Part shown: in pieces, positions 778-22,191 of the stretch
How the letters are laid out: each line of letters opens with the position of its first letter
How positions within the stretch are numbered: position 1 is the stretch's first letter
DNA from: a virus
Length of the DNA: 22,795 nucleotides
IMG/VR virus record: IMGVR_UViG_3300023179_000543
Coordinates: 1-22,795 of that record
Direction: 5' to 3' (one strand)
The notes under the pieces: model-generated
Databases searched by the model: none
Seen by the model: the letters and a program-made list of their open reading frames with translations, nothing else
Told to the model about the DNA's origin: nothing
Translations under genes and position numbers: made by a program

Positions 778-1206
778 TTATCGGGCGGACCTGACCTCGG
801 CCCAGTCGGCCAAGAACGCCGCGAGACGAGCCCGGATGAGCCCGACGCCCTCGAGCCACGGCTCGAGCACGGGCCCGAGCCAAGAGGCCTTGATCGCCGC
901 GATACAGCCGCAGCCGTCAAGGTGCCTCGGCTCGCGGCCGAGGTCCCAGACCAGCCGCCACCGCAAGGGCTCGGGAACGCCGAGCCACCGCAGGCCCCAC
1001 CACACCACGATGCCGTCGGCGTCAGGGTGACGTCCAAGCGGGCACACCGCATCGCTCGCGGTCGCCTGCAAGATGTCCTTGCCGCTGATGGTGCAGGCCA
1101 CGACGCCGACGCCGTCGCGTTCTCCGTGCGGGCACAGATGGCACATGGCCGCCTTGCTGGCGAGCGATGGTGACGGCTTGGACTTGGCGTTGCATCCGCA
1201 AGGCAT
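778..1206 (-). CDS. Cysteine-rich protein with metal-binding-like motifs
   Basis: A 142-residue protein starting in the TGATG overlap with the large Cys-rich gene, so both are probably made together. Cys positions are 3, 5, 22, 25, 38, 55, 99 and 101. The C-x-C and C-x-x-C spacing (PCGC, CHLC, then VACTI and VCPLG) suggests one or two zinc or iron sites. The middle (GIVVWWGLRWLGVPEPLRWRLVWDL) is aromatic-rich, and the C-terminus (EGVGLIRARLAAFLADWAEV) is an amphipathic helix. I believe similar small proteins occur in planctomycete genomes, but could not check. Function is unknown; coupling to the upstream gene suggests a common structure. Confidence 0.7.
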   Translation of the reverse strand: MPCGCNAKSKPSPSLASKAAMCHLCPHGERDGVGVVACTISGKDILQATASDAVCPLGRHPDADGIVVWWGLRWLGVPEPLRWRLVWDLGREPRHLDGCGCIAAIKASWLGPVLEPWLEGVGLIRARLAAFLADWAEVRSAR

Positions 1207-2588
1207 CAGAGAATGTCCGTTGAGCGTGTTCGATTGCGGCCGCCTGGCGGTGCCACCACCACGCGAGTCGGAGGCTGTGCCCGGCAGTCGCCGTAGTACG
1301 CGGTGCGGTCGAGCACCGTCACGTTGACGCGATCGGTGTATGAGTACTGCTCTCGCCGTATCAACTTGCCGACGGCTTCCGGGCACGACTGATCCACGCC
1401 AAATCCACCGTATGGAGGCCAGCACAACCTAGCAAGGTCATTGGGATCCGCAGCGGCGTGTCGGTATTCGGTTCGGCTCGTCCAAGTTTTCTCTGCTCCT
1501 CCGCATGACCACGAATACTGAACGGTGCGCCACGTTTCTCTGATGACGCAGCCATCGTGAACGCGTTCGTATGCCGGTTCATTTGGGCACTCTTCAAGTC
1601 TTGGTCCACGAGATGGACCTGCGAAGATGCAAGGTTGCGTGTCACTGTCATATCCGCTCTCGTCGTTGATTGGCCTCTCCGTGTATTGCAAACATGCATT
1701 AGGCCAATCGGTGCCGCAGCCGCGTCCATCAGGCAAAATCTCCTCTGGATATTTGCAGTATTGACGTGAGAAGCCGAATCGTTGAAATGAGTACTGGGCT
1801 CGTGCGGTTCCGCGCGTCGCCGGTTGATCTGGATCGCCTTCCTCGCGGTAGCACTTGCGGCACGTGCCGTCATAGATGTACGACTCGTTGGTGCGTTCAA
1901 ACAGAATCAATCGTTCCGGAAGGCACGCCGGAATAATGCACCATTGCAACTGCGGCGGCCAATCGGGAGGATAAGTGCCCGGTCGCGTTCCGTGCTCGAC
2001 TTCAAAGATCTCGAGCGTTGATGAACTGCTGTAGGTTCGATAGATTCTGGCATGAGTGCCGTAGTTGCACAGCGTGTATGTGTCGCTTGGGCCCGGGTAT
2101 CTTGAGCCGGTCCATTCGTCGCATCGTCCACCGTGGTACAACTTGATGCAGCAATCGACGGGCTCGCATTCCGGACACTCTCCGGGCAGCGAATCGCAAG
2201 CGTTGAGCAGGCCTCCCTCTTCTCGATCGACGTACGGCAAGCATCTCGCAGTGCGTGCCTGCTCTTCAGTCAACAGGACGATTTCGGATGGATCGTCGTA
2301 CCGGCTTTCGCATGGTGGATCGCCCAAGCACCGATAGAAGCATTCGTTGAAGCCGTCGAACTTGAACTTCGCCTCTTGATCTGGCGGATGGTCGCCGCAG
2401 TCGATGCCACGGATGTGCGCGTCATAGTGTGCACGCGTCATCTTGACGACTGGGTATCCGTCGCAGCAGTCGGCAAAGTAGACGAACTCTTCGCCGGGCC
2501 CACAGCAGCACGGCGCACCGTTGGCATCGGTGACTAACTTGCGATCGTTGGCGCTCAGTCGCCGGTCTTGTGCGATCAGTTTCGCCAA
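1206..2588 (-). CDS. Very cysteine-rich 460-residue virion protein candidate
   Basis: Starts at TTG 2588, 15 nt after the previous stop; no ATG occurs before residue 50 and the ribosome site is weak, so the exact start is uncertain. It has 31 Cys (6.7 percent), including APCCCG at 26-30, DCCDG at 40-44, CPECEPVDCC at 138-147 and CRKC at 243-246. Tyr and Arg are also abundant. Three similar strand modules end in Q-Y-S-aromatic near 265, 357 and 414. There is no signal peptide or membrane segment. Proteins with PCCCG starts appear in planctomycete-type phages in my recollection; this was not checked. Gene order next to fibres suggests a host-contact structure with many disulphides or metal sites. 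It overlaps the next gene by one base (TGATG). Confidence 0.72.
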   Translation of the reverse strand: MAKLIAQDRRLSANDRKLVTDANGAPCCCGPGEEFVYFADCCDGYPVVKMTRAHYDAHIRGIDCGDHPPDQEAKFKFDGFNECFYRCLGDPPCESRYDDPSEIVLLTEEQARTARCLPYVDREEGGLLNACDSLPGECPECEPVDCCIKLYHGGRCDEWTGSRYPGPSDTYTLCNYGTHARIYRTYSSSSTLEIFEVEHGTRPGTYPPDWPPQLQWCIIPACLPERLILFERTNESYIYDGTCRKCYREEGDPDQPATRGTARAQYSFQRFGFSRQYCKYPEEILPDGRGCGTDWPNACLQYTERPINDESGYDSDTQPCIFAGPSRGPRLEECPNEPAYERVHDGCVIRETWRTVQYSWSCGGAEKTWTSRTEYRHAAADPNDLARLCWPPYGGFGVDQSCPEAVGKLIRREQYSYTDRVNVTVLDRTAYYGDCRAQPPTRVVVAPPGGRNRTRSTDIL

Positions 2589-2603: not shown

Positions 2604-3524
2604 TCAGTTCAGGCCATCGGCACCGGGCCCGATCGGATTGCGAGTCGTGATCGTCAGGTACTTCGACGGAATGATGGTGCATGACGGCGCATCCTCCACC
2701 AGCGTGATGATCATCGGGCGAGCGAGCCGCGAGAAGTCGATGGTGCCGCCGAGTGCGAGCAGGTTCGTGATGCCTGCCGTCGGGGTATCGGGGTTGCCCG
2801 CGTTGAGCACCGTCGTCGTGCCGCCGGTCACGGTCATGGCCGAGATGTTGCGGCTGCCGGCGTCGATGGTCACGGCTCCGCCCGCGACGTGCAGGCCTTC
2901 GGTCCGGCTGCCAGCGGTGATCGTCGTGCCTTGGATACCACGCTTGAGCAGGTGCTGTCCGCCGGTGATCGTCAGTGCGTGAATGTCGTTCGTGCCGCCG
3001 CTGTTCACGATGTCGATCGTGCTCGTGCCGCCAGTGAACACCCAGCGGTAGTTTGCGACGCTGCCGACATTCTGGTTGATGATGACTCGGCCCGCGGTCA
3101 ACTCGAGCCGACGCACCGAGCACGTGCCGGTCACGTAGAGAGAGCCCGCCCCGTTGACTTGTAGGTAGTGGACCTCGTCGTTGGCCGACGCGTTCTCGGC
3201 GGTGTAGTACAGGGTGCCGCCGCTGGCCTCGTACCGGACTCGCGGCAACTGCGTGATCTGCGAGAAGAGCGAGTTGCGAGTCTGGAAGGCGAGGCTGCCG
3301 CTGGTGCCGCCCGCGATGTTGCCCGCGAAGCCCGGCGAGATGTCCAGATACTTGATGCCGTTGGTCAGGCTCGTCCACGTGATGTCGCTGGTGATGGCCT
3401 GCGTGCCGGTCTGAATGAGCAGTTCGGCGTCGTCAACGATGCCTGAGCCCGCGGCACCTCCGAGGGTTTTCCAGTTGCCCGAGGCGAGTGACGTGGCGCC
3501 GGTGTTGAGAAGTTCGATTGCCAT
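2604..3524 (-). CDS. Repetitive beta-rich virion protein, possible beta-helix
   Basis: A 306-residue protein with AAGGAA 9 nt before its ATG. It is rich in Thr, Gly, Ile and Ser and consists of short repeated strands with turns (for example LYVTGTCSVRRLELTAGRVIINQNVGS, ALTITGGQHLLKRGIQGTTITAGSRTEGLHVAGGAVTIDAGSRNISAMTVTGG). The repeated T-I-T-G-G and V-T-G-G-T turns look like a right-handed beta-helix, as in many tail-spike or fibre proteins. No catalytic pair is evident, so a depolymerase activity is not supported. The position after the collagen fibre module supports a second fibre or spike, but the exact role is inference. Its stop is 15 nt before the next start. Confidence 0.7.
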   Translation of the reverse strand: MAIELLNTGATSLASGNWKTLGGAAGSGIVDDAELLIQTGTQAITSDITWTSLTNGIKYLDISPGFAGNIAGGTSGSLAFQTRNSLFSQITQLPRVRYEASGGTLYYTAENASANDEVHYLQVNGAGSLYVTGTCSVRRLELTAGRVIINQNVGSVANYRWVFTGGTSTIDIVNSGGTNDIHALTITGGQHLLKRGIQGTTITAGSRTEGLHVAGGAVTIDAGSRNISAMTVTGGTTTVLNAGNPDTPTAGITNLLALGGTIDFSRLARPMIITLVEDAPSCTIIPSKYLTITTRNPIGPGADGLN

Positions 3525-3910: not shown

Positions 3911-5902
3911 TCAGACTCGAATCCAGATTGCCTGCGCGACATACCCATACTGCTGTGCAGCATCGGCAGGATCGGGAAGCCCCGCGGATCTGTCGGTCAG
4001 GCTGTGATATGCCATGACGATCGAATCGCTGGCGGGATCTCCGATCTGAGTTGGCATCCAGTAGTTGTTTCCGTATGCGGTGTAGCCTCGCCAGGTCGCC
4101 GCTGTGGTGCTGACGCTGCAGCAGAGCCAATACCAACCGGCATCGAGCGATTGCGAGATGGTGATGCTGTGCGTTGCCGTTCCTGTCGCACTGGTAAAGG
4201 TAAATCCGCCGGCATCCAACTTCCGCGTCCCGGGCTTGCCGTTGCTGTCGTTGTAGATTCCAAGCCTGCCATTGGCCGTTCCAACGACCGAGGTTGTGGC
4301 GATGGTTCTCACGGCGATGCGATCGACGGTGACGGTTCTGCCGATCCAGATCGGTTGGTAGGTCGTGCCGACGGAGAGCGTTCTTGTGCCCATGTCGCCG
4401 GGCATTCGCATCCATGATGATCCGCCGATAGGAGATGTGCATGCTCCACCGCTCACTCCTGCAGGTCCAGTCGGACCAGTCGGACCAGTCGGACCTCCGC
4501 TTGGACCAGTCGCGCCGGTCGGTCCGGTTGGTCCTGTCGCTCCGGTATCGCCCTTTTGGGCGATCAGCGTCCAGTACGTTGGAGATGACGGCGGAATGTT
4601 GTTTGTAGATGTAGCGATGCAGACATACGAGGACCCCTGATACGTCACGACGTCATTTGGATCGTATGTTGCGGCACTCAGCCATGATGCCGACCAAGTC
4701 AACGATGTTCCTGCGGGACCTGTCGGACCTGTCGCACCCGTTGGACCAGTAGCACCAACAGGACCAGTTGCGCCGGTCGGCCCAGTTGCACCGGTTGGTC
4801 CGGTTGCTCCTGTTGCACCATTGGCACCCGTTGGTCCAGTTGGTCCTGTCGCACCGGTCGGTCCCGTCGCACCAGCCGGGCCGGTCGCACCCGTGGGTCC
4901 GGTCGCCCCCGTCGGTCCTGTCGCTCCTGTGAGGCCCGTAGCCCCGGCAGGACCTGTTGCGCCGGTTGGTCCGGTCGCACCTGTTGCGCCAGTTGGTCCG
5001 GTCGCACCTGCTGGTCCTGTTGCGCCAGTTGGTCCAGTAGGACCAGTTGGGCCACCGATTGAATTTGCAACCTGCGTTACGGTCAAGATGATGCTCGGCG
5101 TAGCCGGTCGCGTCGGGCCGGTTGCCGCTGCCATGGCGTCGATCTTGACGTCCGAGTCCGTGGCCGACATGACGATCTCGAAGTAGTCGCCGCTCGCCAC
5201 CGTCGCCACGTAGTTCCAAGCCGCGACATACCCAGCGTTGTTGCCAGCAATCTCGTAGTCGGTATTGCTCCTCGGCACGTCAACGCCATTGAGGCGGAAC
5301 CAGATACTCACGGTTTCGTCGCCGCCAGCGGTGTGCCGCAACTGGGCCGAGAACTGGAAGTTGTACGTGCCCGCATTGCCGATCACCACGCGGCTTGTCG
5401 GCGTGCCGATGCTGACGCCGCTGGCCTCCTCGGTCGTGTTGTACGTGATCGCCGTTGCCGTCGCGTTGCCGATAGTCTGATCGCTGCTGTCGCTGAACAC
5501 GCCGTACCAGCCGCGACCGCCCAAGGCCGTCGGCACCTCCACCACGTCGCCGGTCATGCCGAGCACCGTCAACTTGTACTCGGCAGTGCCGCTCGTAGTC
5601 GTCACCTGAAATCGCACGTACCTGATGCCGGCCACGTAGATCGGTTCCTTCAGTCCGATCGTGGTGTACTCCACCGCACCCTGCGGCATCGGGCTCCAGG
5701 TCTCGTTGTCGTTGCTGCCCTGGACGCTGATGATGCCCGCAGCCGCGGCGTCGAGCGGCGTCGAGATCTGTGCCCGGATCGCGGCGTACTGGCTCACGTC
5801 ATAGACGAGGCCGCTGCTGATGTTCGACACCATCTGGGCGGCGTCGAACTGCGACACGCCGTTGGTGTTGATCGGCACGAGAATGTCGGTGCGGTACGGC
5901 AT
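3911..5902 (-). CDS. Collagen-like tail fibre / receptor-binding protein
   Basis: A 663-residue fibre. Residues 1 to about 125 are a beta-rich base domain; 130-258 look like a jelly-roll domain ([28 protein letters not shown]... [18 protein letters not shown]). Residues 284-399 are a collagen-like GPTGATG repeat. Residues 400-449 hold a carbohydrate-binding-like insert ([41 protein letters not shown], in the style of small chitin-binding modules). Residues 451-486 are a second collagen block. Residues 490-663 form a beta-rich head ([27 protein letters not shown]) that probably binds the host. The next gene starts 2 nt later. Fibres of this plan attach to the tail and recognise the cell surface. 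Confidence 0.88.
4445..4552 (-). repeat. Collagen-like coding repeat, block 2
   Basis: A shorter Gly-X-Y stretch (fibre residues 451-486), separated from block 1 by the carbohydrate-binding-like insert. A single extra Gly after GPSG (residue 470) interrupts the register. Confidence 0.8.
4706..5053 (-). repeat. Collagen-like coding repeat, block 1
   Basis: 116 residues of Gly-X-Y triplets, almost all GPT and GAT (fibre residues 284-399). The DNA is a degenerate nine-base repeat. The triplets would fold as a collagen triple helix and therefore trimerise the fibre. Confidence 0.9.
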
Positions 5903-5905
5903 GGC

Positions 5906-6295
5906 TTATTGCTCTGGCGTTGCTGGAGTCGATTCTTGCCCGCTTCCCGGCTGAACGGCGATCGCCGTGGTGATGCGGCGAATCCGCAGGATTTCTTCCG
6001 GCACGTCAAGGCCAGTGCTCGGCACGCCACCGCAGTTTGCAAACGCTGGGTATTCTATGAAGTGCCACTGAATGCGGTTCGATGACACGGTGCCGATCAC
6101 GATGTCGCCGGGCGCCAGCGGAATAATGTCAAGCGTGGGCGGCCATCGGCGAATCGGTACCTGCCTCTCGAGCCGATACACGCCTTCCACTTGCGGATCA
6201 TGCACGGCGATGGTGTACCAGATGTTGACGGCTCTATCAGGATTGTTGCCCTGAACCGAATGAATCCTGCCGAGGATGAGTCGAGGGTCTGCCAT
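5906..6295 (-). CDS. Small tail protein, unknown
   Basis: A 129-residue protein. The ATG at 6295 follows the previous stop by one base. It has a beta-rich start (RLILGRIHSVQGN), an IWYTIAVHD strand, and LDIIPLAPGDIVIGTVSSNRIQWHFIEYPAFANCG, followed by a Pro/Thr/Gln-rich tail. The middle reads like a small OB- or SH3-like barrel, as in baseplate hub or tip proteins, but this is a weak resemblance. It sits between the distal tail gene and the collagen-like fibre, so a role at the tail tip or fibre base is plausible. I see no other clue to function. Confidence 0.6.
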   Translation of the reverse strand: MADPRLILGRIHSVQGNNPDRAVNIWYTIAVHDPQVEGVYRLERQVPIRRWPPTLDIIPLAPGDIVIGTVSSNRIQWHFIEYPAFANCGGVPSTGLDVPEEILRIRRITTAIAVQPGSGQESTPATPEQ

Positions 6296-6296
6296 G

Positions 6297-7118
6297 TCAC
6301 AGGATCCGACTTGCACCGGGCAGGCTTCGCCAACCGTTGGCGACTGTCTCGTACACGTCTTGAATGAACGACTTGGGCAGATCGGTTTCTGGATCACCGT
6401 CCTGCACCACGGCGAAGATCGTATACGGAGGACGCACAGCAGGACCTTGGCAATACGAGATGAGCGGCGTTCCAGTTGGCGGCAGGTAGTCTGTCCCGTT
6501 GTCCACCACCCACGTGTAGTTGATGTCGTACGTGCCAGCGTCGTCAACCTGCGTGACAGTGCCGCCCTCAAAGTGATACAGGCGGTTGGCGATCTGGTGT
6601 AGTTTGTCGGTCTGCTCGGCGATGACGTCGAACTCGCGAACATTCGTCGTGGTCACGCGGACCTGCAATGGCCGCACAATGCGAGTCTCGGTCAGTTGCT
6701 TCTTAGCGACCTTCCATACAAGTTTCTCGAGGTCATTGCCGTTTACGTCGGTGTTGAGCACCTTTGATCTAACGCAGATTGGAATCTCCACCTGCACCTT
6801 GCGGCTTGCCCATCCCCAGTGGTACCAGGCCGGGGCGTCCTTGTTCGGAGCCCTCAACTCGATGAATCGGCCATCGGTAGAGTACTGGCAATCGATGACG
6901 CAAACGCCGTCGGTCTGTGACGTGATGTTGTAGCGGTCGAGCCGCAACTTCGGATCGTCCGGGTGCGTCGAGTTGAGCCGCGGAATGTCCGGCGACTGAA
7001 GAGCCGCGAACGGCTGCGCGGTTGCAACGACGAAACGACGGCTAGCGGTTCGCTTGCCGGTGCGATCCTCGCCAAACTGCTGAGCGAGTGCAAGGTCATA
7101 TCCGGGAAGTTGGCTCAT
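6297..7118 (-). CDS. Distal tail protein candidate, unknown family
   Basis: A 273-residue protein starting in an ATGA overlap after the tape measure candidate. The central part is beta-rich (GVCVIDCQYSTDGRFIELRAPN, KVQVEIPICVRSKVLN, RPLQVRVTTTNVREFDVIAEQTDKLHQIANRLYHFEGG). A C-terminal segment (YTIFAVVQDGDPETDLPKSFIQDVYETVANGW) looks helical. No catalytic motif or signal peptide is visible. Position after the tape measure suggests a baseplate or distal-tail role, but I do not recognise the family. It is followed by the next ATG one base after its own stop. Confidence 0.62.
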   Translation of the reverse strand: MSQLPGYDLALAQQFGEDRTGKRTASRRFVVATAQPFAALQSPDIPRLNSTHPDDPKLRLDRYNITSQTDGVCVIDCQYSTDGRFIELRAPNKDAPAWYHWGWASRKVQVEIPICVRSKVLNTDVNGNDLEKLVWKVAKKQLTETRIVRPLQVRVTTTNVREFDVIAEQTDKLHQIANRLYHFEGGTVTQVDDAGTYDINYTWVVDNGTDYLPPTGTPLISYCQGPAVRPPYTIFAVVQDGDPETDLPKSFIQDVYETVANGWRSLPGASRIL

Positions 7119-10689: not shown

Positions 10690-11334
10690 TCAGGCCCTCA
10701 TGCTGTTGTAAGCGGCCATGAGCGACGCCTTGATTTCGGTCGTCTTGGACGGGTCGAGATTGCTGTACGAGTACTGGCCGAGGCTCTCGCTGGCAAGGCC
10801 GAAGTTGCGGCCGCGTGCCGAGTAGGCAAGGTCCGTCAGGCGGTAGCACGCCATCTTCAGGTCGGCCGGAAGCAGGTCTGTTGGGGTCCGTGCATACCCA
10901 GCGGTGTACACCACTTCGATGTTCTGCCAGCCCTCGTCGAACCACGGCTGCACGCTGAATGTCGCGTTGACGGTGCCGAAGGCTGTGACTGGGAATCGCC
11001 CCTTCTTCGGGTCGATGCGAGACAGCACGCCCGAGTCGGCATCGACGCGGTACGTGGTCGAGTCGTATGCCTGCGAGGTTCCGTCGGCCTGATAGAGCGT
11101 CACGCTGGCGACGCTGGTGACAGGCCATTCCTTCAGTTGGATGGTCTGCTCGTTGTTGCCGTCGTATCGCTCGGTGCGGCTCACCGACTCGAATCCGTCG
11201 GTAAGGTTCCGATCGCACCAGCGTCGGACCTCCATCGACACGGCATCCACCAGCACCGTCAGCAGTGCGTCCTGTGCGGTTCCGCTGATGCCTGCCCAGA
11301 CCTTGTACTCGGCGATGGAGATGAGGCTTGCCAT
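10690..11334 (-). CDS. Head-tail connector protein, gp6-like
   Basis: A 214-residue protein with the gp6-like connector pattern: N-terminal helices (SIAEYKVWAGISGTAQDALLTVLVDAVSMEVRRWCDRNL), then a beta-rich insert typical of these proteins (QTIQLKEWPVTSVASVTLYQADG, VVYTAGY), and C-terminal helices (LLPADLKMACYRLTDLAYSARGRNFGLASESLG-YSYS). The sequence LPADLKMAC and the SESLG-YS tail are familiar in this family. It would form the ring under the portal. Its start overlaps the previous stop (TAATG) and the next ATG is 2 nt after its own stop, so translation is coupled. Length is somewhat above the smallest members because of the beta insert. Confidence 0.87.
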   Translation of the reverse strand: MASLISIAEYKVWAGISGTAQDALLTVLVDAVSMEVRRWCDRNLTDGFESVSRTERYDGNNEQTIQLKEWPVTSVASVTLYQADGTSQAYDSTTYRVDADSGVLSRIDPKKGRFPVTAFGTVNATFSVQPWFDEGWQNIEVVYTAGYARTPTDLLPADLKMACYRLTDLAYSARGRNFGLASESLGQYSYSNLDPSKTTEIKASLMAAYNSMRA

Positions 11335-11906
11335 TAGAGCACCTGTGCGACGATGGGGAACTCGGCAGCGGCGGGGTTCAGCGTGACGAACGAAGAGTCT
11401 GTTTGCACCAGCACGAGCACTGCCTTGGCGCCACGCAACTCGTAGCCGTCGTTGCTGGTTGGCGTGGTGATGCTTAGGCCTGTGCTCTGGATCGCCTGCG
11501 GTGAACCTGCGAGGCTCGAGACCGTCGTGCCTGCTGCGTTGAACGTCGCGGCATCAAGCCGCCAGAAGATCGTGCCAGTCGGGAATACGCCAGAAGCGTT
11601 CGGCACTTTGTCAGCACCAAACACTCGCACGGCCGCTTCCGTGGCATCAGTCCACGTGGTTGCCGACGCATACCTCAACGCGAGCCTGATCTTGGTGCCG
11701 ACGCCGCCGACGATGATCGGAATGTGCGACGAAGCCTTGGCGTCGCTCGAGTACGTGCCGGGATTGAGCAGCACGCCAGCGGCGACTGCCGCAGCCTTGG
11801 AATCGGTGACCACCATCTGCCACGTGCCGGCCTCGATTCCAGACGGCAACGACACATCCGATCCGCCATTCGTGAACGTCGCCGCACTGGTGACAGGTGC
11901 CGCCAT
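11334..11906 (-). CDS. Virion surface or decoration protein candidate, paralogue 2
   Basis: A 190-residue paralogue of the gene starting at 12460, with the same opening MAAPVTSAATF and the conserved core GVFPTGTIFWRLDAATFN and SNDGYELRGAKAVLVL. Divergent segments carry most of the variation (for example residues 12-40). The ATG at 11906 has GAGGAG 6 nt upstream, inside the 3' end of its paralogue's leader; the two genes are separated by 8 nt. It ends in TAATG, overlapping the connector gene. Its predicted fold is mainly beta. Having two diverged copies suggests either a heteromeric surface layer or that one copy is specialised. Confidence 0.7.
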   Translation of the reverse strand: MAAPVTSAATFTNGGSDVSLPSGIEAGTWQMVVTDSKAAAVAAGVLLNPGTYSSDAKASSHIPIIVGGVGTKIRLALRYASATTWTDATEAAVRVFGADKVPNASGVFPTGTIFWRLDAATFNAAGTTVSSLAGSPQAIQSTGLSITTPTSNDGYELRGAKAVLVLVQTDSSFVTLNPAAAEFPIVAQVL

Positions 11907-11914
11907 GTCGCTCC

Positions 11915-12460
11915 TCAGTTGATGACCTGTGCGAGAACGCGGCACACGGTGTCAGCACCGCCGCTGATGCTGGCCGCGGTCGAGTGCAGGACGATCACGC
12001 TCTTGGCTCCGAGCAGGGCGTAGCCGTCGTTGCTATATGGCGTCGAATAGGCAAAGGTGCCGTCCTGCTGACTAGACGACGCCGCGGCCATCGTCATCGT
12101 CAGGCCCGTGCCCGTGAACGTGTTCGCGTCCAGCCGCCAGAAGATCGTGCCCGTCGGATACACGCCGCTGGTGTCGGGAATCTGATTAGCACCAAGCACG
12201 CGAACGACAGGGCTCGTGGTGATCGTCGTGACAGCATCATCAAACTTGGTGATGAGTCGGATCTTGGTGCCGACGTTGATGATGAGCGGGTGAATGTCAA
12301 CGCTCGAGTATGAGCCCGGGTTGAGCAGCACGCTCGCACCGATGGCGGTGTTGCTGACGTTGTCATGCACCTGCACCCACTCGCCGAAGATGTTGCTGGC
12401 ATACGTGATGCCGCCGCCGCCTGCACTGAATGTCGCCGCCGATGTGACTGGTGCTGCCAT
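11915..12460 (-). CDS. Virion surface or decoration protein candidate, paralogue 1
   Basis: A 181-residue beta-rich protein with GGAG 8 nt before its ATG. It is a clear paralogue of the next gene (starting at 11906): both begin MAAPVTSAATF and share VLLNPG-YSS, VGTKIRL, YPTGTIFWRLDA (FPTGTIFWRLDA in the other) and SNDGY-L-GAK. The shared blocks are in the same order and spacing, so it is a tandem duplication with strong divergence between blocks. No signal peptide or membrane segment is seen. Placement between capsid and connector genes suggests a capsid-surface or minor structural role. Position supports a virion role, while the exact location on the particle is inference. Confidence 0.7.
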   Translation of the reverse strand: MAAPVTSAATFSAGGGGITYASNIFGEWVQVHDNVSNTAIGASVLLNPGSYSSVDIHPLIINVGTKIRLITKFDDAVTTITTSPVVRVLGANQIPDTSGVYPTGTIFWRLDANTFTGTGLTMTMAAASSSQQDGTFAYSTPYSNDGYALLGAKSVIVLHSTAASISGGADTVCRVLAQVIN

Positions 12461-12483
12461 GGGATTCTCCGTTTGGAATCCGC

Positions 12484-12505
12484 CCGACCGGCGGTAGCCG
12501 ATCGG
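12484..12505 (-). other. Hairpin between two structural genes
   Basis: An 8-bp stem with one G-U pair (CCGATCGG, loop CTACCG, CCGGTCGG on the minus strand) fills the 68-nt gap before the gene starting at 12460. There is no T-run. It may tune expression of the following genes relative to the capsid genes. Confidence 0.35.
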
Positions 12506-12528
12506 AGCGGGTTGTGTGAGCAGGTCGA

Positions 12529-13014
12529 TCAGATCGCGACCGTCGAACGGTCGAGCAGGCCAGCCTGCACCGCACGGGCGATTTCCGTCGCACCGTTGAT
12601 GCCAGTGCCCGGACCCTCGCCGATCCACAGCACGCACGAGAGCGTGGCCGACGCGCTGTAGTCCAACTCGAGGCGGAGGTACCGCTTCAGCGTTCCGCCG
12701 GTGCGGACGTTGATGGTGCGGATCGTGCTGGCGTTGGTCGCCGCTACAAGCGATCCCGTGAGAGCGGTGCTTCCGGTAGTCACGTCCGACCACGAGGAGT
12801 TGTCGTCCGAGTGCTGCAACTTCGGCTGAGCGCCGAGGTCGCCGCCGACCGCACCGAAGATCAGCACCGCCGTCCACGACGTGCAGTTGCCGCGTCCGGT
12901 GTTCAGCGTGCTCTGGAGGTCCAGAGCGGTGGTGCCGAACGCCGCCGTGTCGGAGCGAGACTGGGGAGCGTAACCGAGGAAGAACACTGCGTTCTGGAGG
13001 GAAGATTCACTCAT
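12529..13014 (-). CDS. Small head or decoration protein candidate
   Basis: A 161-residue protein directly after the capsid gene. It is beta-rich and polar, with the pattern WTAVLIFGAVGG, KLQHSDDNSSWSDVT and RYLRLELDYSASATLSCVLWIG. Proteins of this type after the capsid gene are often capsid-surface or decoration proteins in phages. The pattern of a deviation strand followed by an S-DD-SS-W turn and a final RYLRL strand is common among them. No enzyme motif is seen. The C-terminus (GATEIARAVQAGLLDRSTVAI) is helical. The ribosome site is weak (AGAAAGACGAA). The call rests on position and beta content. Confidence 0.65.
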   Translation of the reverse strand: MSESSLQNAVFFLGYAPQSRSDTAAFGTTALDLQSTLNTGRGNCTSWTAVLIFGAVGGDLGAQPKLQHSDDNSSWSDVTTGSTALTGSLVAATNASTIRTINVRTGGTLKRYLRLELDYSASATLSCVLWIGEGPGTGINGATEIARAVQAGLLDRSTVAI

Positions 13015-14585: not shown

Positions 14586-15284
14586 TCACCGCAGCACGAT
14601 CGTCCGCTTCGGGCGGCACCCGAAGTCGGCCATAACGCGATCGGGTACTCTCGCATCGACCAAGGCCTTGCGGCTCTTCTCGGCATTGGTCGCGGCGTCG
14701 GCGATGTTGGCGCCCACCTGACGGCAGGTCACGTTCATCGGCAGGGCCGTGTACGACACCTCGAGCACCTTGGCCTTGCGGACGATCGACTCGATTCCGG
14801 GATACGCGGCCCGCTCGGCCTCGTTGGGCGGGCCCCACTCAAGAGCCTCGAAGCCGATGGACATGGCCAGCGTGCCCGCCTTGGCCAACGCCACGCAGGC
14901 ACGCACGTACGGGTTGGTCATGTCGTCATGAAACACGCCGCGGCACAGCCAGCCTGACGGGCTCAGCGTCATCGACCGAGCGACCGCCACCGCCGAGCAC
15001 ACGTCGTAGTTGTGGTCAACGAACAGGTTGCGGTTGACGGTCAGATACGACTGAACGTCGAGTCCGGTCGGCAGGACCACTTCCCGCTCAAGGTCCACGG
15101 CCGCGGTGTTGGCGTAGCAGACGACTTCCAGAGGGCCGTCCGTGGCCTGCTTGACGCCAGCCTTGGCGTGATAGGCCGACTTGCCCGCGATCACGCCGAT
15201 GGGCGCGTCGGGTTTGGTCAGCATCTTGCGGTTCAGTGCCATGCGGCGAATCGCCGCGATGATGTCAGAGGGTCGGTCATTCAT
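14586..15284 (-). CDS. HK97-type prohead protease
   Basis: A 232-residue protein. The start at 15284 (ATGAATGA overlap with the portal gene) is chosen over a frame extending to 15554, which would lie deep inside the MuF domain. The S78 protease pattern is visible: His91 in FVDHNYD and Ser142 in TLAMSIGFEALEW, the catalytic His and Ser positions, with beta strands between them (VARSMTLSPSGWLCRGVFHDD). Proteases of this family trim the scaffolding part of the capsid protein and then themselves. The gene order portal, protease, capsid is the classic HK97 arrangement. The C-terminal 40 residues are basic and probably removed on maturation. The stop codon is directly followed by a copy of the 13-bp element. 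Confidence 0.92.
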   Translation of the reverse strand: MNDRPSDIIAAIRRMALNRKMLTKPDAPIGVIAGKSAYHAKAGVKQATDGPLEVVCYANTAAVDLEREVVLPTGLDVQSYLTVNRNLFVDHNYDVCSAVAVARSMTLSPSGWLCRGVFHDDMTNPYVRACVALAKAGTLAMSIGFEALEWGPPNEAERAAYPGIESIVRKAKVLEVSYTALPMNVTCRQVGANIADAATNAEKSRKALVDARVPDRVMADFGCRPKRTIVLR

Positions 15285-17985
15285 CGGTGTATTCCACGCC
15301 GGGCACAAGGTCGCACCGGCAGTTTGGGTGTGCGGTTGGGGCTTGGCCTGAGAAGCCGCCGGCCTCGAACGCTTGGCCGATCGGAATCTCGCCGGGGTAC
15401 GCATCCGCGATCGCCTCGCAGATCGGGCACGGGCCGCCGGCGACGATCCACTGCTTCGTCTCGACGCCCTCCTGCTGCCATGCGAGTCGGTTGCCCTCGC
15501 AGTACGCGTTCGCCGTTTCGGTGCGTGCGATGCGGACCGCCTGCCACTCGGCAAGGTCAGGGGCCATCTCCTTGATCGCGTCTCGCAGGCCCGCGATGCT
15601 GGTGCCCTTGGCGAGTTCCTTCTCGATCACCGCCTGCACGTGCGGCTTCAGCGTGTCGGGCACGGTCGATGCCAAGAAGAGGCCGCGGTTGCGAACATAC
15701 GACATGGCCGACTCGTTCGCCACGTTGAAGGCGTCGGGCTCCATGCCGATCTTGACCATGCCCTCCTTGCCGCCGGTCAGGATCGCCGCCGTCACGAACC
15801 GCTCGGCGATCTTCGACAGGTCGGCCATCGCCTCGTCGCTCGGGAACACCGCCATGCCTGCATCATTGACCATCGACGGCACGGCCATCTTGTACCAGCC
15901 GAGCATGTCACGCTCGAAGGCCCGGTACGCACTGACGCTGGCGACCGGCGTGCCCGTCTCGTCGTCCCACTGCGTCGCGGCCTTGTACCGCTTGGGCACC
16001 TTGATCCGCGGCCGCGTGTCGCATGGCTTCTGGTCGCAGGGCTTGACCTCGGGCTCGATCATCGCCTTTGAGCAGTTGCAGGCCGTGCAGCCGCCGACGG
16101 CCTTCTCGCCGTCCTCGTCGGCCTCGACCTTGCCGATGATCTTGTCAGCCCACGTCCGGCCCGGGTCGCCGCCCCACAGGGCCCACGCGATGCGACCGGC
16201 CGACGGATAGCCCTCCTCGTCTCGGTTCCATCCTTGGCCCTGCTTATCGACCTCGTGCCGCGCGAAGTACGACGCCATGCGATACACCGTGTCGAGCGAT
16301 AGGTTTTTGCCGTTGGCAATGTCACGGGCACGAGCGACGCCGACGGCCGTGCCGCCGCGACCATACTCGGCCCGCCACGCGAGACCACGCTCGGCTTCGG
16401 CTTGCATCGCCTCGTTCGGCGGGTAACTGTCGGCCTTGGTCGTCATCGCCTTGGCTTCGACTTCGGGGGCGACTTCGGGTGTGACTTCGGTGGTGGCGTC
16501 CTCGTCGATGCTCGGGGCCTCGGTGTCCACCGAAGCGTCCATCGTCGCCGGCTCGGCCTCGACGTCCACGCTGCCCACGTCCTCGCTCGGCATCTCCTCG
16601 GCCTTCGCCGGGGCAGGCAGGCCGCCGCCGAAGATGCCGAGTCCAGCCGGAGCCGGTGCCTCGGTCTGCCGGTACCGCATCACGTTCGACTCGTCCGGCA
16701 ACGCCTCGAGGTCCAGCACCTTGCGGTACTCGTTGGGCGACACAATGCCCTGCATCTCGCCCGCTCGCAGTTCAGCCGCCAGTTGCAACTGATCCTCTTG
16801 CGTCGGATCGTCGAAGCAGAACCACATCTCGCCGGGCTCGACGCCGAAGTGCGGCAGCAGCAGTTCCGTCAACTCGGACGCCAGCACCGCCAGCCGCGGG
16901 GCGATGGTGTACCGCATGTACTGGGCGTTCGCCACTGTCGCAGAGGCAAGGTTCGCCGAGTTCAGCCGGTAGATCGGCTCGGGCACGCCGGCGGCGTCGT
17001 ATATCCGCTTCTCGGTCGTGGTCAGGCCCTCGACGTACTGCATCTCGTGCGGCTTGGCCCCGTACTGCTCGAGCGTGGTGTCACGCAGCAGCAGCACGCT
17101 TCCGGCCTTGCCGACGCCTCGCATGCTCTGATTTAGGTGCGAGTGGATCTGCTTCATCTGGGCGTCGGTCGTGGTCGGTGCCGCCTTGAACACCATGCCC
17201 GGGTTGCCGCCGTTGAGCCAACGCTGGGCCTCGGCCTGCAACGCTGCCGCCTCCATGTCCGTCTCGGCCATGACGCTGAACAGCCACGACATGCCACCCG
17301 CCGGATGCGTTGGGCTCCCGTGCTGCCGCAGGTACACCACATCGCTCGACGGGATCCGCATCGGGGCCGAGCGGTTCCGCCCGTAGTAGTAACCCTCGAT
17401 GAAGCCCGTGTCCGACAGCATCGGCCATGCGAACTGCGACGGCAGGATGTACGCCGATTCAGGCACGCCGCCGGGCCCACGCTCGCCAACGTACAGGTAC
17501 GCTCGACCGGCCACTTCCTTGAACCAGAAGATCTGGTGCAGCCACATCGGGCCCGTGTATATCGGGTCCGGGTTGTGGATTAGGTCGAGCACGGGATGGT
17601 CGAGAACTTCCTCGACCTCGTCGCCCGCTCGACTGGCATACGACGCTGCCTTGCCGATGAGCGACTTGATGCCGCCTCGGTTGGTGGCATGCTTCAGCGT
17701 GCGACGGTCAGCCACCTTGCGGCCGGCCTTGGCCATGCCGACGCCGGCGTTGCGGAACAGCCGCAGCGTCTGGCCCGCCAGCACCGTGGCGTTGATCGTC
17801 GCCGCCCGATAGGCCGTGCCCGTGATGCCTCGCGTGACCAACTCGTAGTCGCGGCCCGTGTTCTGGTTGTTGCGGCTCGTCGAGGCCTCGCCTGCCACCA
17901 GCGACGCGCTGATCCACGCACCCGGAATGGTGCGGTCGTCAGGTTCGATGGCCGTGGTTGCTGCCTTGGGTGATCGCTTCGCCAT
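15277..17985 (-). CDS. Portal protein fused to a MuF-type minor head protein
   Basis: A 902-residue fusion. Residues 1 to about 445 are an HK97-type portal (PVLDLIHNPDP, WFKEVAGRAYLYV, VVYLRQHGSP, GVPEPIYRLNSANLASAT, FDDPTQED). An acidic linker (about 460-512) follows. Residues 515-620 form a separate domain (PPNEAM, GVARARDIANGK, RMASYFARHEVDK, GRIAWALWGGDPGR), a module I have seen in other phage head proteins without a known function. A Cys cluster (C633, C636, C638, C650, C655) may bind metal. Residues about 690-897 are MuF-like: RIARTETANAYCEGN, CPIC, and a final HPNCRCDLVPG. Portals form the dodecameric DNA gate and MuF proteins sit inside the head or assist assembly; here both are one chain. 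The stop overlaps the protease start by 8 nt. The ATG follows the terminase stop by 3 nt. Confidence 0.93.
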   Translation of the reverse strand: MAKRSPKAATTAIEPDDRTIPGAWISASLVAGEASTSRNNQNTGRDYELVTRGITGTAYRAATINATVLAGQTLRLFRNAGVGMAKAGRKVADRRTLKHATNRGGIKSLIGKAASYASRAGDEVEEVLDHPVLDLIHNPDPIYTGPMWLHQIFWFKEVAGRAYLYVGERGPGGVPESAYILPSQFAWPMLSDTGFIEGYYYGRNRSAPMRIPSSDVVYLRQHGSPTHPAGGMSWLFSVMAETDMEAAALQAEAQRWLNGGNPGMVFKAAPTTTDAQMKQIHSHLNQSMRGVGKAGSVLLLRDTTLEQYGAKPHEMQYVEGLTTTEKRIYDAAGVPEPIYRLNSANLASATVANAQYMRYTIAPRLAVLASELTELLLPHFGVEPGEMWFCFDDPTQEDQLQLAAELRAGEMQGIVSPNEYRKVLDLEALPDESNVMRYRQTEAPAPAGLGIFGGGLPAPAKAEEMPSEDVGSVDVEAEPATMDASVDTEAPSIDEDATTEVTPEVAPEVEAKAMTTKADSYPPNEAMQAEAERGLAWRAEYGRGGTAVGVARARDIANGKNLSLDTVYRMASYFARHEVDKQGQGWNRDEEGYPSAGRIAWALWGGDPGRTWADKIIGKVEADEDGEKAVGGCTACNCSKAMIEPEVKPCDQKPCDTRPRIKVPKRYKAATQWDDETGTPVASVSAYRAFERDMLGWYKMAVPSMVNDAGMAVFPSDEAMADLSKIAERFVTAAILTGGKEGMVKIGMEPDAFNVANESAMSYVRNRGLFLASTVPDTLKPHVQAVIEKELAKGTSIAGLRDAIKEMAPDLAEWQAVRIARTETANAYCEGNRLAWQQEGVETKQWIVAGGPCPICEAIADAYPGEIPIGQAFEAGGFSGQAPTAHPNCRCDLVPGVEYTDE

Positions 17986-21877: not shown

Positions 21878-21906
21878 TCCTCACTCACTTTCTGCGGCTG
21901 TGCCGC

Positions 21907-22191
21907 TTAGTAACCAATGCCATAGCCGTTGCCATAGCCGTTGCCGTAGCCGTTGCCGTAGCCGTAGCCGTAGCCAAAGCCATCGCCGTAGCCGTAGCCG
22001 TTGCCGTAGCCGTTGCCGTTACCGTAGCCGTTGCCTTCGCCGTCGCCGTAGCCGTAGCCAAAGCCATCGCCGTAGCCGTTGCCGTAGCCGAATCCGTAGC
22101 CGTAGCCGTTACCGTAGCCGTTGCCGTAGCCAAAGCCGTCGCCGTAGCCGTTGCCGAAGTTGATCAGACTGTGTGCATCTTCGTCGCTCAC
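21907..22191 (-). CDS. Alternating-glycine (GYGNGYGD) low-complexity protein
   Basis: A 94-residue protein starting at GTG in a GTGA overlap, with AAGGAGG upstream. After a short acidic head (MSDEDAHSLINF), every second residue from 13 to the end is glycine. The residues between are almost only Tyr, Asn, Phe and Asp, with single Glu and Ile. The coding DNA is a hexamer-like repeat of GGC-TAC and GGC-AAC codons. There is no signal peptide or membrane segment. The stop codon, the strong ribosome site shared with neighbouring genes and the clean reading frame argue that it is expressed. Such alternation favours beta-sheet, silk-like or amyloid-like assemblies, or an adhesive or condensate-forming chain; this is inference from composition. 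The opposite-strand reading (alternating Ala-Val) is a shadow. Confidence 0.7.
   Translation of the reverse strand: MSDEDAHSLINFGNGYGDGFGYGNGYGNGYGYGFGYGNGYGDGFGYGYGDGEGNGYGNGNGYGNGYGYGDGFGYGYGYGNGYGNGYGNGYGIGY
21910..22155 (-). repeat. Six-base GGCTAC/GGCAAC tandem repeat
   Basis: The DNA coding for the alternating-glycine protein is a degenerate tandem repeat of six-base units on the minus strand, mostly GGCTAC and GGCAAC with some GGCGAC and GGCTTC. Because the unit is a multiple of three, gain or loss of copies changes protein length without breaking the frame. Confidence 0.85.

What the first reader, a model, noticed from the sequence alone, without database searches (positions are those of the whole stretch)
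778..2588. Two coupled cysteine-rich genes at the end of the virion region
The 460-residue protein has 31 Cys with clusters PCCCG, DCCDG, CPECEPVDCC and CRKC, and the next gene (142 residues, 8 Cys) starts in its stop codon. So many Cys are rare in phage virion proteins, which assemble in a reducing cytoplasm. The three Q-Y-S-aromatic strand units hint at an internal repeat. The pair may be a disulphide- or metal-stabilised host-binding structure fitted to a host with an unusual cell surface.
Basis: partly seen in the sequence, partly recalled or inferred. Interest (0 to 1): 0.57.

Follow-up and report, generated by a model that had tools for sequence, protein, structure and literature searches.

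The report
Phage tail adhesin with triple-cysteine anchor
An uncultured phage carries a cysteine-packed protein, probably part of the tail that grips the host cell, built as a fixed short front end marked by three cysteines in a row plus a body that related phages swap, followed by a small cysteine-rich partner gene.

Summary
Window 1206-2588 (-) encodes 460 aa with 31 Cys and 778-1206 (-) encodes 142 aa with 8 Cys; they overlap at TGATG. No library, PDB sequence or record among 50,697 cultured phages matches either protein convincingly. IMG/VR gave relatives on 17 further contigs. I aligned 15 proteins, the window's included: CCC stands at residues 27-29 in 15 of 15. Residues 1 to about 29 form a constant head. 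The body behind it is exchanged between close phages: L251 and L253 share 86-100% DNA across most of a 6.8-kb tail cluster but 61-77% in this body. In group-B pairs, identity breaks within a few bases of the CCC codons. In the window's subgroup, 20 of 31 Cys are invariant although overall identity is only about 27%. I read it as a receptor-binding-type tail protein whose CCC head docks on the tail tip, with the small Cys protein as a likely assembly partner. A 129-aa tail protein with one Cys conserved in 9 of 9 sequences is a candidate dock. Virion presence, disulphides or metal, receptor and host are untested; AlphaFold models failed. The Q-Y-S repeat and 'unusual host surface' are not supported.

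The parts
1206..2588 (-). CCC protein, 460 aa, 31 Cys, TTG start: putative tail adhesin
2502..2588 (-). constant head, residues 1-29, with M1, T20, G24, A25 and C27-C29 invariant in 11 aligned heads
2502..2510 (-). CCC codons (residues 27-29); DNA identity breaks within a few bases behind them in group-B homologue pairs
1209..2501 (-). body, residues 30-460, exchangeable between phages; in the window's subgroup 17 further Cys are invariant
778..1206 (-). small partner, 142 aa, 8 Cys, all invariant in subgroup A; start overlaps stop of the CCC gene
2604..3524 (-). 306-aa upstream neighbour, conserved in this slot (27-57% to L058, L010, L002)
5906..6295 (-). 129-aa tail protein with a single Cys (residue 88, window 6032-6034), conserved in 9 of 9 aligned homologues; candidate dock for the CCC head (inference)
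3911..5902 (-). 663-aa collagen-like tail fibre protein, marks the tail-fibre region
6297..7118 (-). 273-aa tail protein before the 129-aa one; three of its Cys conserved in 8 of 9 homologues but absent in L058

Best explanation
The 460-aa protein is most likely the distal receptor-binding component of a short non-contractile tail. SHOWN: a constant head of about 29 residues ending in CCC; a body exchanged among close relatives by recombination whose edge lies at or just behind the CCC codons (group B); strong Cys conservation in the window's subgroup; a fixed position after a conserved ~300-aa tail-region protein and before a small Cys-rich gene. INFERRED: the head docks on the tail tip, using its Cys for inter-subunit disulphides or a metal site. 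The candidate partner is the lone conserved Cys of the 129-aa tail protein. The Cys-rich body is a cross-linked domain that contacts the host, and exchanging it changes host range. The small 8-Cys protein is an assembly or folding factor (thiol or metal type), as fibre chaperones often sit directly downstream of the fibre gene (established knowledge). With no signal sequence, cross-linking would follow assembly or release.
For: CCC at residues 27-29 in 15 of 15 proteins. Profile-profile alignment of subgroups A and B covers only columns 1-47 (E 9e-14). L229/L232: neighbour 89%, head 100%, body 43%, small protein 95% identical; window/L239: neighbour 89%, body 26%. L251/L253: the body is the lowest stretch of a 6.8-kb tail cluster (61-77% against mostly 86-100%), with body dS about 1.04 against 0.30 in the neighbour and dN/dS 0.25. 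Mismatch runs begin at nt 89 or 94, CCC codons being nt 79-87, in the four pairs compared among L229, L232, L250 and L251. In A3, 20 of 62 invariant columns are Cys (Fisher p 5.6e-12). Slot: in 15 of 16 neighbour loci the next gene is visible and starts with the head in all 15. One Cys in 9 of 9 homologues of the 129-aa protein, L058 included. Precedent: N-terminal Cys15 and Cys38 of Milano's tailspike and short fibre are disulphide-bonded to baseplate/sheath proteins (PMC10811340). No strongly hydrophobic N-terminus in any member.
Against: No fold: AlphaFold pLDDT 29 and 43. No virion, receptor or host evidence. Exchange with constant ends is also possible for non-virion accessory proteins. 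The body is not the only variable stretch: L251/L253 dips to 74% near 3443, and L250/L251 dips to 70-79% in the 353-aa gene. The sharp breakpoint is shown in group B only; in L229/L248, L250/L253 and L251/L253 head mismatches are scattered and no sharp edge is seen. In the window's subgroup dS is near saturation, and the window/L239 head is only 52-55% identical. L058 has no small partner in the roughly 640 nt available. Small proteins A and B are not shown to be homologous. Other window tail proteins are not Cys-enriched as a whole, unlike Milano.
Confidence: 0.58

Rival explanations
1. Same virion role, but the Cys bind metal (zinc ribbons or clusters) and form no disulphides; the small protein would be a metallochaperone or a structural zinc protein.
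For: CxxC pairs (CPEC, CRKC), CCC next to CC, and CxxC in the small protein, all in a protein without a signal sequence. Metal-carrying phage fibres have been proposed (PMC11705849: title and start of abstract seen only).
Against: His is scarce (8 of 460). The CCC triplet with many isolated Cys is not a classical zinc-ribbon spacing. No Pfam or PDB sequence match.
Confidence: 0.22
2. Not a virion protein: a variable accessory protein (superinfection exclusion, anti-defence or host take-over) encoded at the border between tail and early genes.
For: The pair is the last unit before recombination-type genes in relatives. Allelic exchange at constant ends is also seen in accessory loci. In L229 a PD-(D/E)XK-like frame sits between the two genes.
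Against: The slot is invariant directly behind a conserved tail-region protein in 15 of 15 visible loci. A 29-residue constant head on an exchanged body is typical of docked adhesins. No PADLOC hit.
Confidence: 0.17
3. Ordinary tail-region filler: a neutral, fast-diverging minor tail protein without host contact, its Cys kept only for its own fold.
For: dN/dS below 1 throughout; other tail genes vary too.
Against: The body dS excess over its flanks shows imported alleles rather than slow drift, and the edge at the CCC codons in group B is sharp.
Confidence: 0.12

Closest known systems
Agrobacterium phage Milano tailspike gp124 and short fibre gp31 (PMC10811340)
   Same: Receptor-binding proteins with an N-terminal Cys (Cys15, Cys38) that is disulphide-bonded to baseplate or sheath proteins; Cys-enriched particle.
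   Different: No relative found here in cultured phages; Milano has a contractile tail; one anchoring Cys is named per protein and no CCC; Cys fraction 2.1% in its structural proteins against 6.7% here; no small Cys-rich partner described in the parts I read.
Modular phage receptor-binding proteins with a conserved N-terminal anchor and exchangeable distal domains (e.g. Klebsiella tailspikes, PMC12692247; abstract start seen)
   Same: Constant N-terminal part, exchanged distal part, gene at the end of the tail cluster.
   Different: The anchor here is only about 29 residues and ends in CCC; the body is Cys-rich, and group B also keeps a constant C-terminal end (GCSNCGD..LEPF).
Tail fibre with a dedicated chaperone gene (e.g. 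myocyanophage Pam3, PMC9608196; abstract start seen; downstream position recalled)
   Same: Small gene directly downstream of the presumed fibre gene, often translationally coupled.
   Different: The small protein is an 8-Cys protein without similarity to any chaperone family in the libraries searched.

Membership tests
Modular phage receptor-binding protein | Constant N-terminal anchor on variable distal parts | tested here: met
Modular phage receptor-binding protein | Gene lies in or at the end of the tail cluster | tested here: met
   PHROG calls on neighbours; slot in relatives
Modular phage receptor-binding protein | Fold of a known fibre, spike or receptor-binding domain | tested here: inconclusive
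   AlphaFold pLDDT 29.4; no PDB sequence hit; no fold search run because the model is too poor
Modular phage receptor-binding protein | Present in virion and binds the host | not testable with these tools
   needs virion proteomics and adsorption tests
Milano-type disulphide-linked tail | N-terminal Cys of the receptor-binding protein linked to a baseplate or tail Cys | tested here: inconclusive
   CCC head conserved; single conserved Cys in a tail protein; no bond shown
Milano-type disulphide-linked tail | Cys enrichment across the structural proteins | tested here: not met
   structural window ORFs mostly 0-1.5% Cys
Diversity-generating retroelement target | Template repeat near the variable gene | tested here: not met
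   no such repeat in window, L250 or L253
Diversity-generating retroelement target | Reverse transcriptase gene nearby | tested here: inconclusive
   none among the 20 window ORFs scanned against PHROGs; not searched in every locus
Tail-fibre assembly chaperone (small gene) | Directly downstream of the fibre gene | tested here: met
   14 of 16 records with a complete CCC gene; displaced by one ORF in L229, not found in L058
Tail-fibre assembly chaperone (small gene) | Sequence similarity to a known chaperone family | tested here: not met
   no Pfam, PHROG or NCBIfam hit below E 0.09

The most novel reading that the evidence does not exclude
A covalently docked adhesin platform: three adjacent Cys form a plug that bonds to the lone conserved Cys of a tail-tip protein in each chain of an oligomer, and the same nine bases serve as the junction at which whole Cys-armoured bodies are exchanged between phages, with a dedicated small Cys-rich protein making or guarding the bonds.
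Probability: 0.22. Interest if true: 0.72.

Novelty: new variant of a known kind. Interest (0 to 1): 0.5.

Why it matters
It adds a protein family absent from Pfam, PHROGs, NCBIfam, PADLOC and 50,697 cultured phages. It gives a sequence handle (R-x-L-V-T-D-A-x-G-A-P-CCC) for finding host-binding genes in uncultured phages. If the Cys anchor is covalent, disulphide-docked receptor-binding proteins would be a recurring solution rather than a peculiarity of one phage.

Tried and rejected
Led nowhere: IMG/VR scan with the 460-aa protein alone; Pfam, PHROGs, NCBIfam, PADLOC and PDB sequence searches (best PDB E 0.6, taken as chance); cultured phages (best hits E 0.4 to 9, taken as chance); Rfam and tRNA scans; promoter and terminator scan. 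AlphaFold with 5 and 6 rows gave pLDDT 29 and 43, so no fold search was run. Considered and rejected: internal Q-Y-S repeat; DGR target; secretion signal or membrane anchor. The neighbour profile matched 0 of 9 genomes and 0 of 392 of the phylum of a record titled Planctomycetota. The head profile gave 39 of 392 weak matches of at most 22 bits; I looked at the 15 fetched loci and judged them chance. Terminase matched 29 of 343 genomes of that phylum (two at 48-49%) and 4 of 296 of the phylum of a Streptomyces record (best 39%), while cultured Thermobifida phage P1312 is also 48%; the host stays open. The two best contigs showed no CCC gene. Not in print: my searches found no paper on this family; they cover open PMC text only, and I looked at listings, not at every paper.

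Rows dropped before counts: in the pattern scans I discarded as chance frames all hits that lacked the head or its position near a start. L003 (near-duplicate of L002), L005 (5' end missing) and L017/L066/L244 (3' cut) were left out of the 15-member table; L254 is cut inside the neighbour. L228 is the same record as L058.

Full report
OBSERVATION. The window is a 22,795-base virus record (G000). On its minus strand, terminase, portal, protease, major head protein, connector and collagen-like tail-fibre genes can be recognised. Past the tail-fibre region lie a 306-aa gene (2604-3524), the 460-aa gene (1206-2588) and the 142-aa gene (778-1206). Cys content is 6.7% and 5.6%, against 1.17% in 22 other tabulated ORFs.

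RELATIVES. Searching with the large protein alone found nothing. The small protein found five IMG/VR loci, and its profile found two more contigs. In every one of these with intact upstream sequence, a homologue of the large protein sat directly upstream. Two motif scans added L058, L229 and L232. A scan with the upstream neighbour gave 16 loci: in 15 the next gene is visible, and in all 15 it begins with the same head; L254 is truncated. Nothing matches in 50,697 cultured phage records, Pfam, PHROGs, NCBIfam, PADLOC or PDB sequences beyond chance-level hits.

ANATOMY. CCC occupies residues 27-29 in 15 of 15 proteins tabulated, although lengths run from 289 to 568 aa and Cys counts from 11 to 31. 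Eleven aligned heads keep M1, T20, G24, A25 and C27-C29. Subgroup A (window, L002, L006, L010, L011) keeps 20 of the window's 31 Cys; these make up 20 of the 62 invariant columns (Fisher p 5.6e-12). Subgroup B (L229, L232, L240, L241, L248, L250, L251, L253) and L239 have different bodies: hhalign of the two profiles aligns columns 1-47 only (E 9e-14). Eight of those nine also share a CxxC C-terminal end; L239 does not.

BODY EXCHANGE. Close phages with nearly identical flanks differ in the body. L251/L253: neighbour 100%, body 69%, small 94% aa identity. L229/L232: 89%, 43%, 95%. Window/L239: 89%, 26%, 45% (the L239 small gene is cut by the contig end). Over 6.8 kb of L251/L253 the body is the lowest stretch, 61-77%; outside it the lowest interior window is 74% near 3443, and L250/L251 dips to 70-79% in a 353-aa gene, so other tail genes vary as well. 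Body dS (1.04) exceeds neighbour dS (0.30) while dN/dS stays at 0.25, which points to imported alleles under purifying selection rather than runaway change in place. Among L229, L232, L250 and L251 (four pairs compared), runs of mismatches begin at nt 89 or 94, just behind the CCC codons (nt 79-87). In L229/L248, L250/L253 and L251/L253 mismatches are scattered through the head and no sharp edge is seen.

PARTNERS. The small gene follows directly in 14 of 16 records with a complete CCC gene, one ORF further on in L229, and not within about 640 nt in L058. All 8 Cys are invariant within small type A and within small type B, but the two types are not shown to be homologous. Among tail proteins, the 129-aa product of 5906-6295 has exactly one Cys, conserved in 9 of 9 aligned sequences including the distant L058 (which itself matches the profile with E 2.3e-5, probability 76%); four of the nine carry a second Cys or none beyond it, the three of the L250 type having one extra. 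Three Cys of the preceding 273-aa protein are kept in 8 of 9 but lost in L058.

MECHANISM. A constant short head, an exchangeable Cys-rich body, a fixed place at the end of the tail genes and a coupled small gene together fit a docked receptor-binding protein with an assembly partner. Docking through the CCC, and its pairing with the lone tail Cys, are inference. Phage Milano shows that N-terminal Cys of receptor-binding proteins can be disulphide-bonded to baseplate and sheath proteins (PMC10811340: abstract, section 12 and search passages read). That paper also gives 2.1% Cys in Milano structural proteins, so 6.7% in one protein is unusual. Unlike Milano, the rest of this tail is not Cys-rich. 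A non-contractile tail is inferred from the absence of any sheath hit among the ORFs scanned against PHROGs.

LIMITS. AlphaFold failed (pLDDT 29.4 and 43.0). The host is unknown: terminase relatives are more frequent in sampled genomes of the Planctomycetota record's phylum (29 of 343) than in the Streptomyces record's phylum (4 of 296), but a cultured Thermobifida phage is as close. Evidence for exchange edges is clearest outside the window's own subgroup. Virion presence was not testable.

VERDICT. A real, conserved and unnamed phage gene pair. Best read as a new variant of the known modular receptor-binding protein, with a possibly covalent Cys anchor as its distinctive and untested feature.

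Noticed in passing
window 21885-22191 (-): A 94-aa frame made almost wholly of Gly-Tyr/Phe-Gly-Asn/Asp repeats (12- and 18-base DNA repeats, 16 copies).
   Followed up: no
window 15277-17985 (-): Portal protein fused in one 902-aa frame to a MuF-type head-morphogenesis domain, with a separate conserved insert (phrog_2859) between them.
   Followed up: partly
L229:3762-4307 (+): A 181-aa PD-(D/E)XK-like frame (my reading of the sequence, no family call) inserted between the CCC gene and the small gene, absent at that place in its close relative L232; could be a mobile nuclease.
   Followed up: no
window 11334-11945 and 11915-12877 (-): Two neighbouring frames contain paralogous proteins (MAAPVTSAATF...), perhaps head decoration or fibre proteins; a 57-base direct repeat joins them.
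   Followed up: no
L250/L251:3924-4985 (353-aa gene): A second variable tail-region gene, 70-79% DNA identity where flanks are above 90%.
   Followed up: partly
   Followed up: partly
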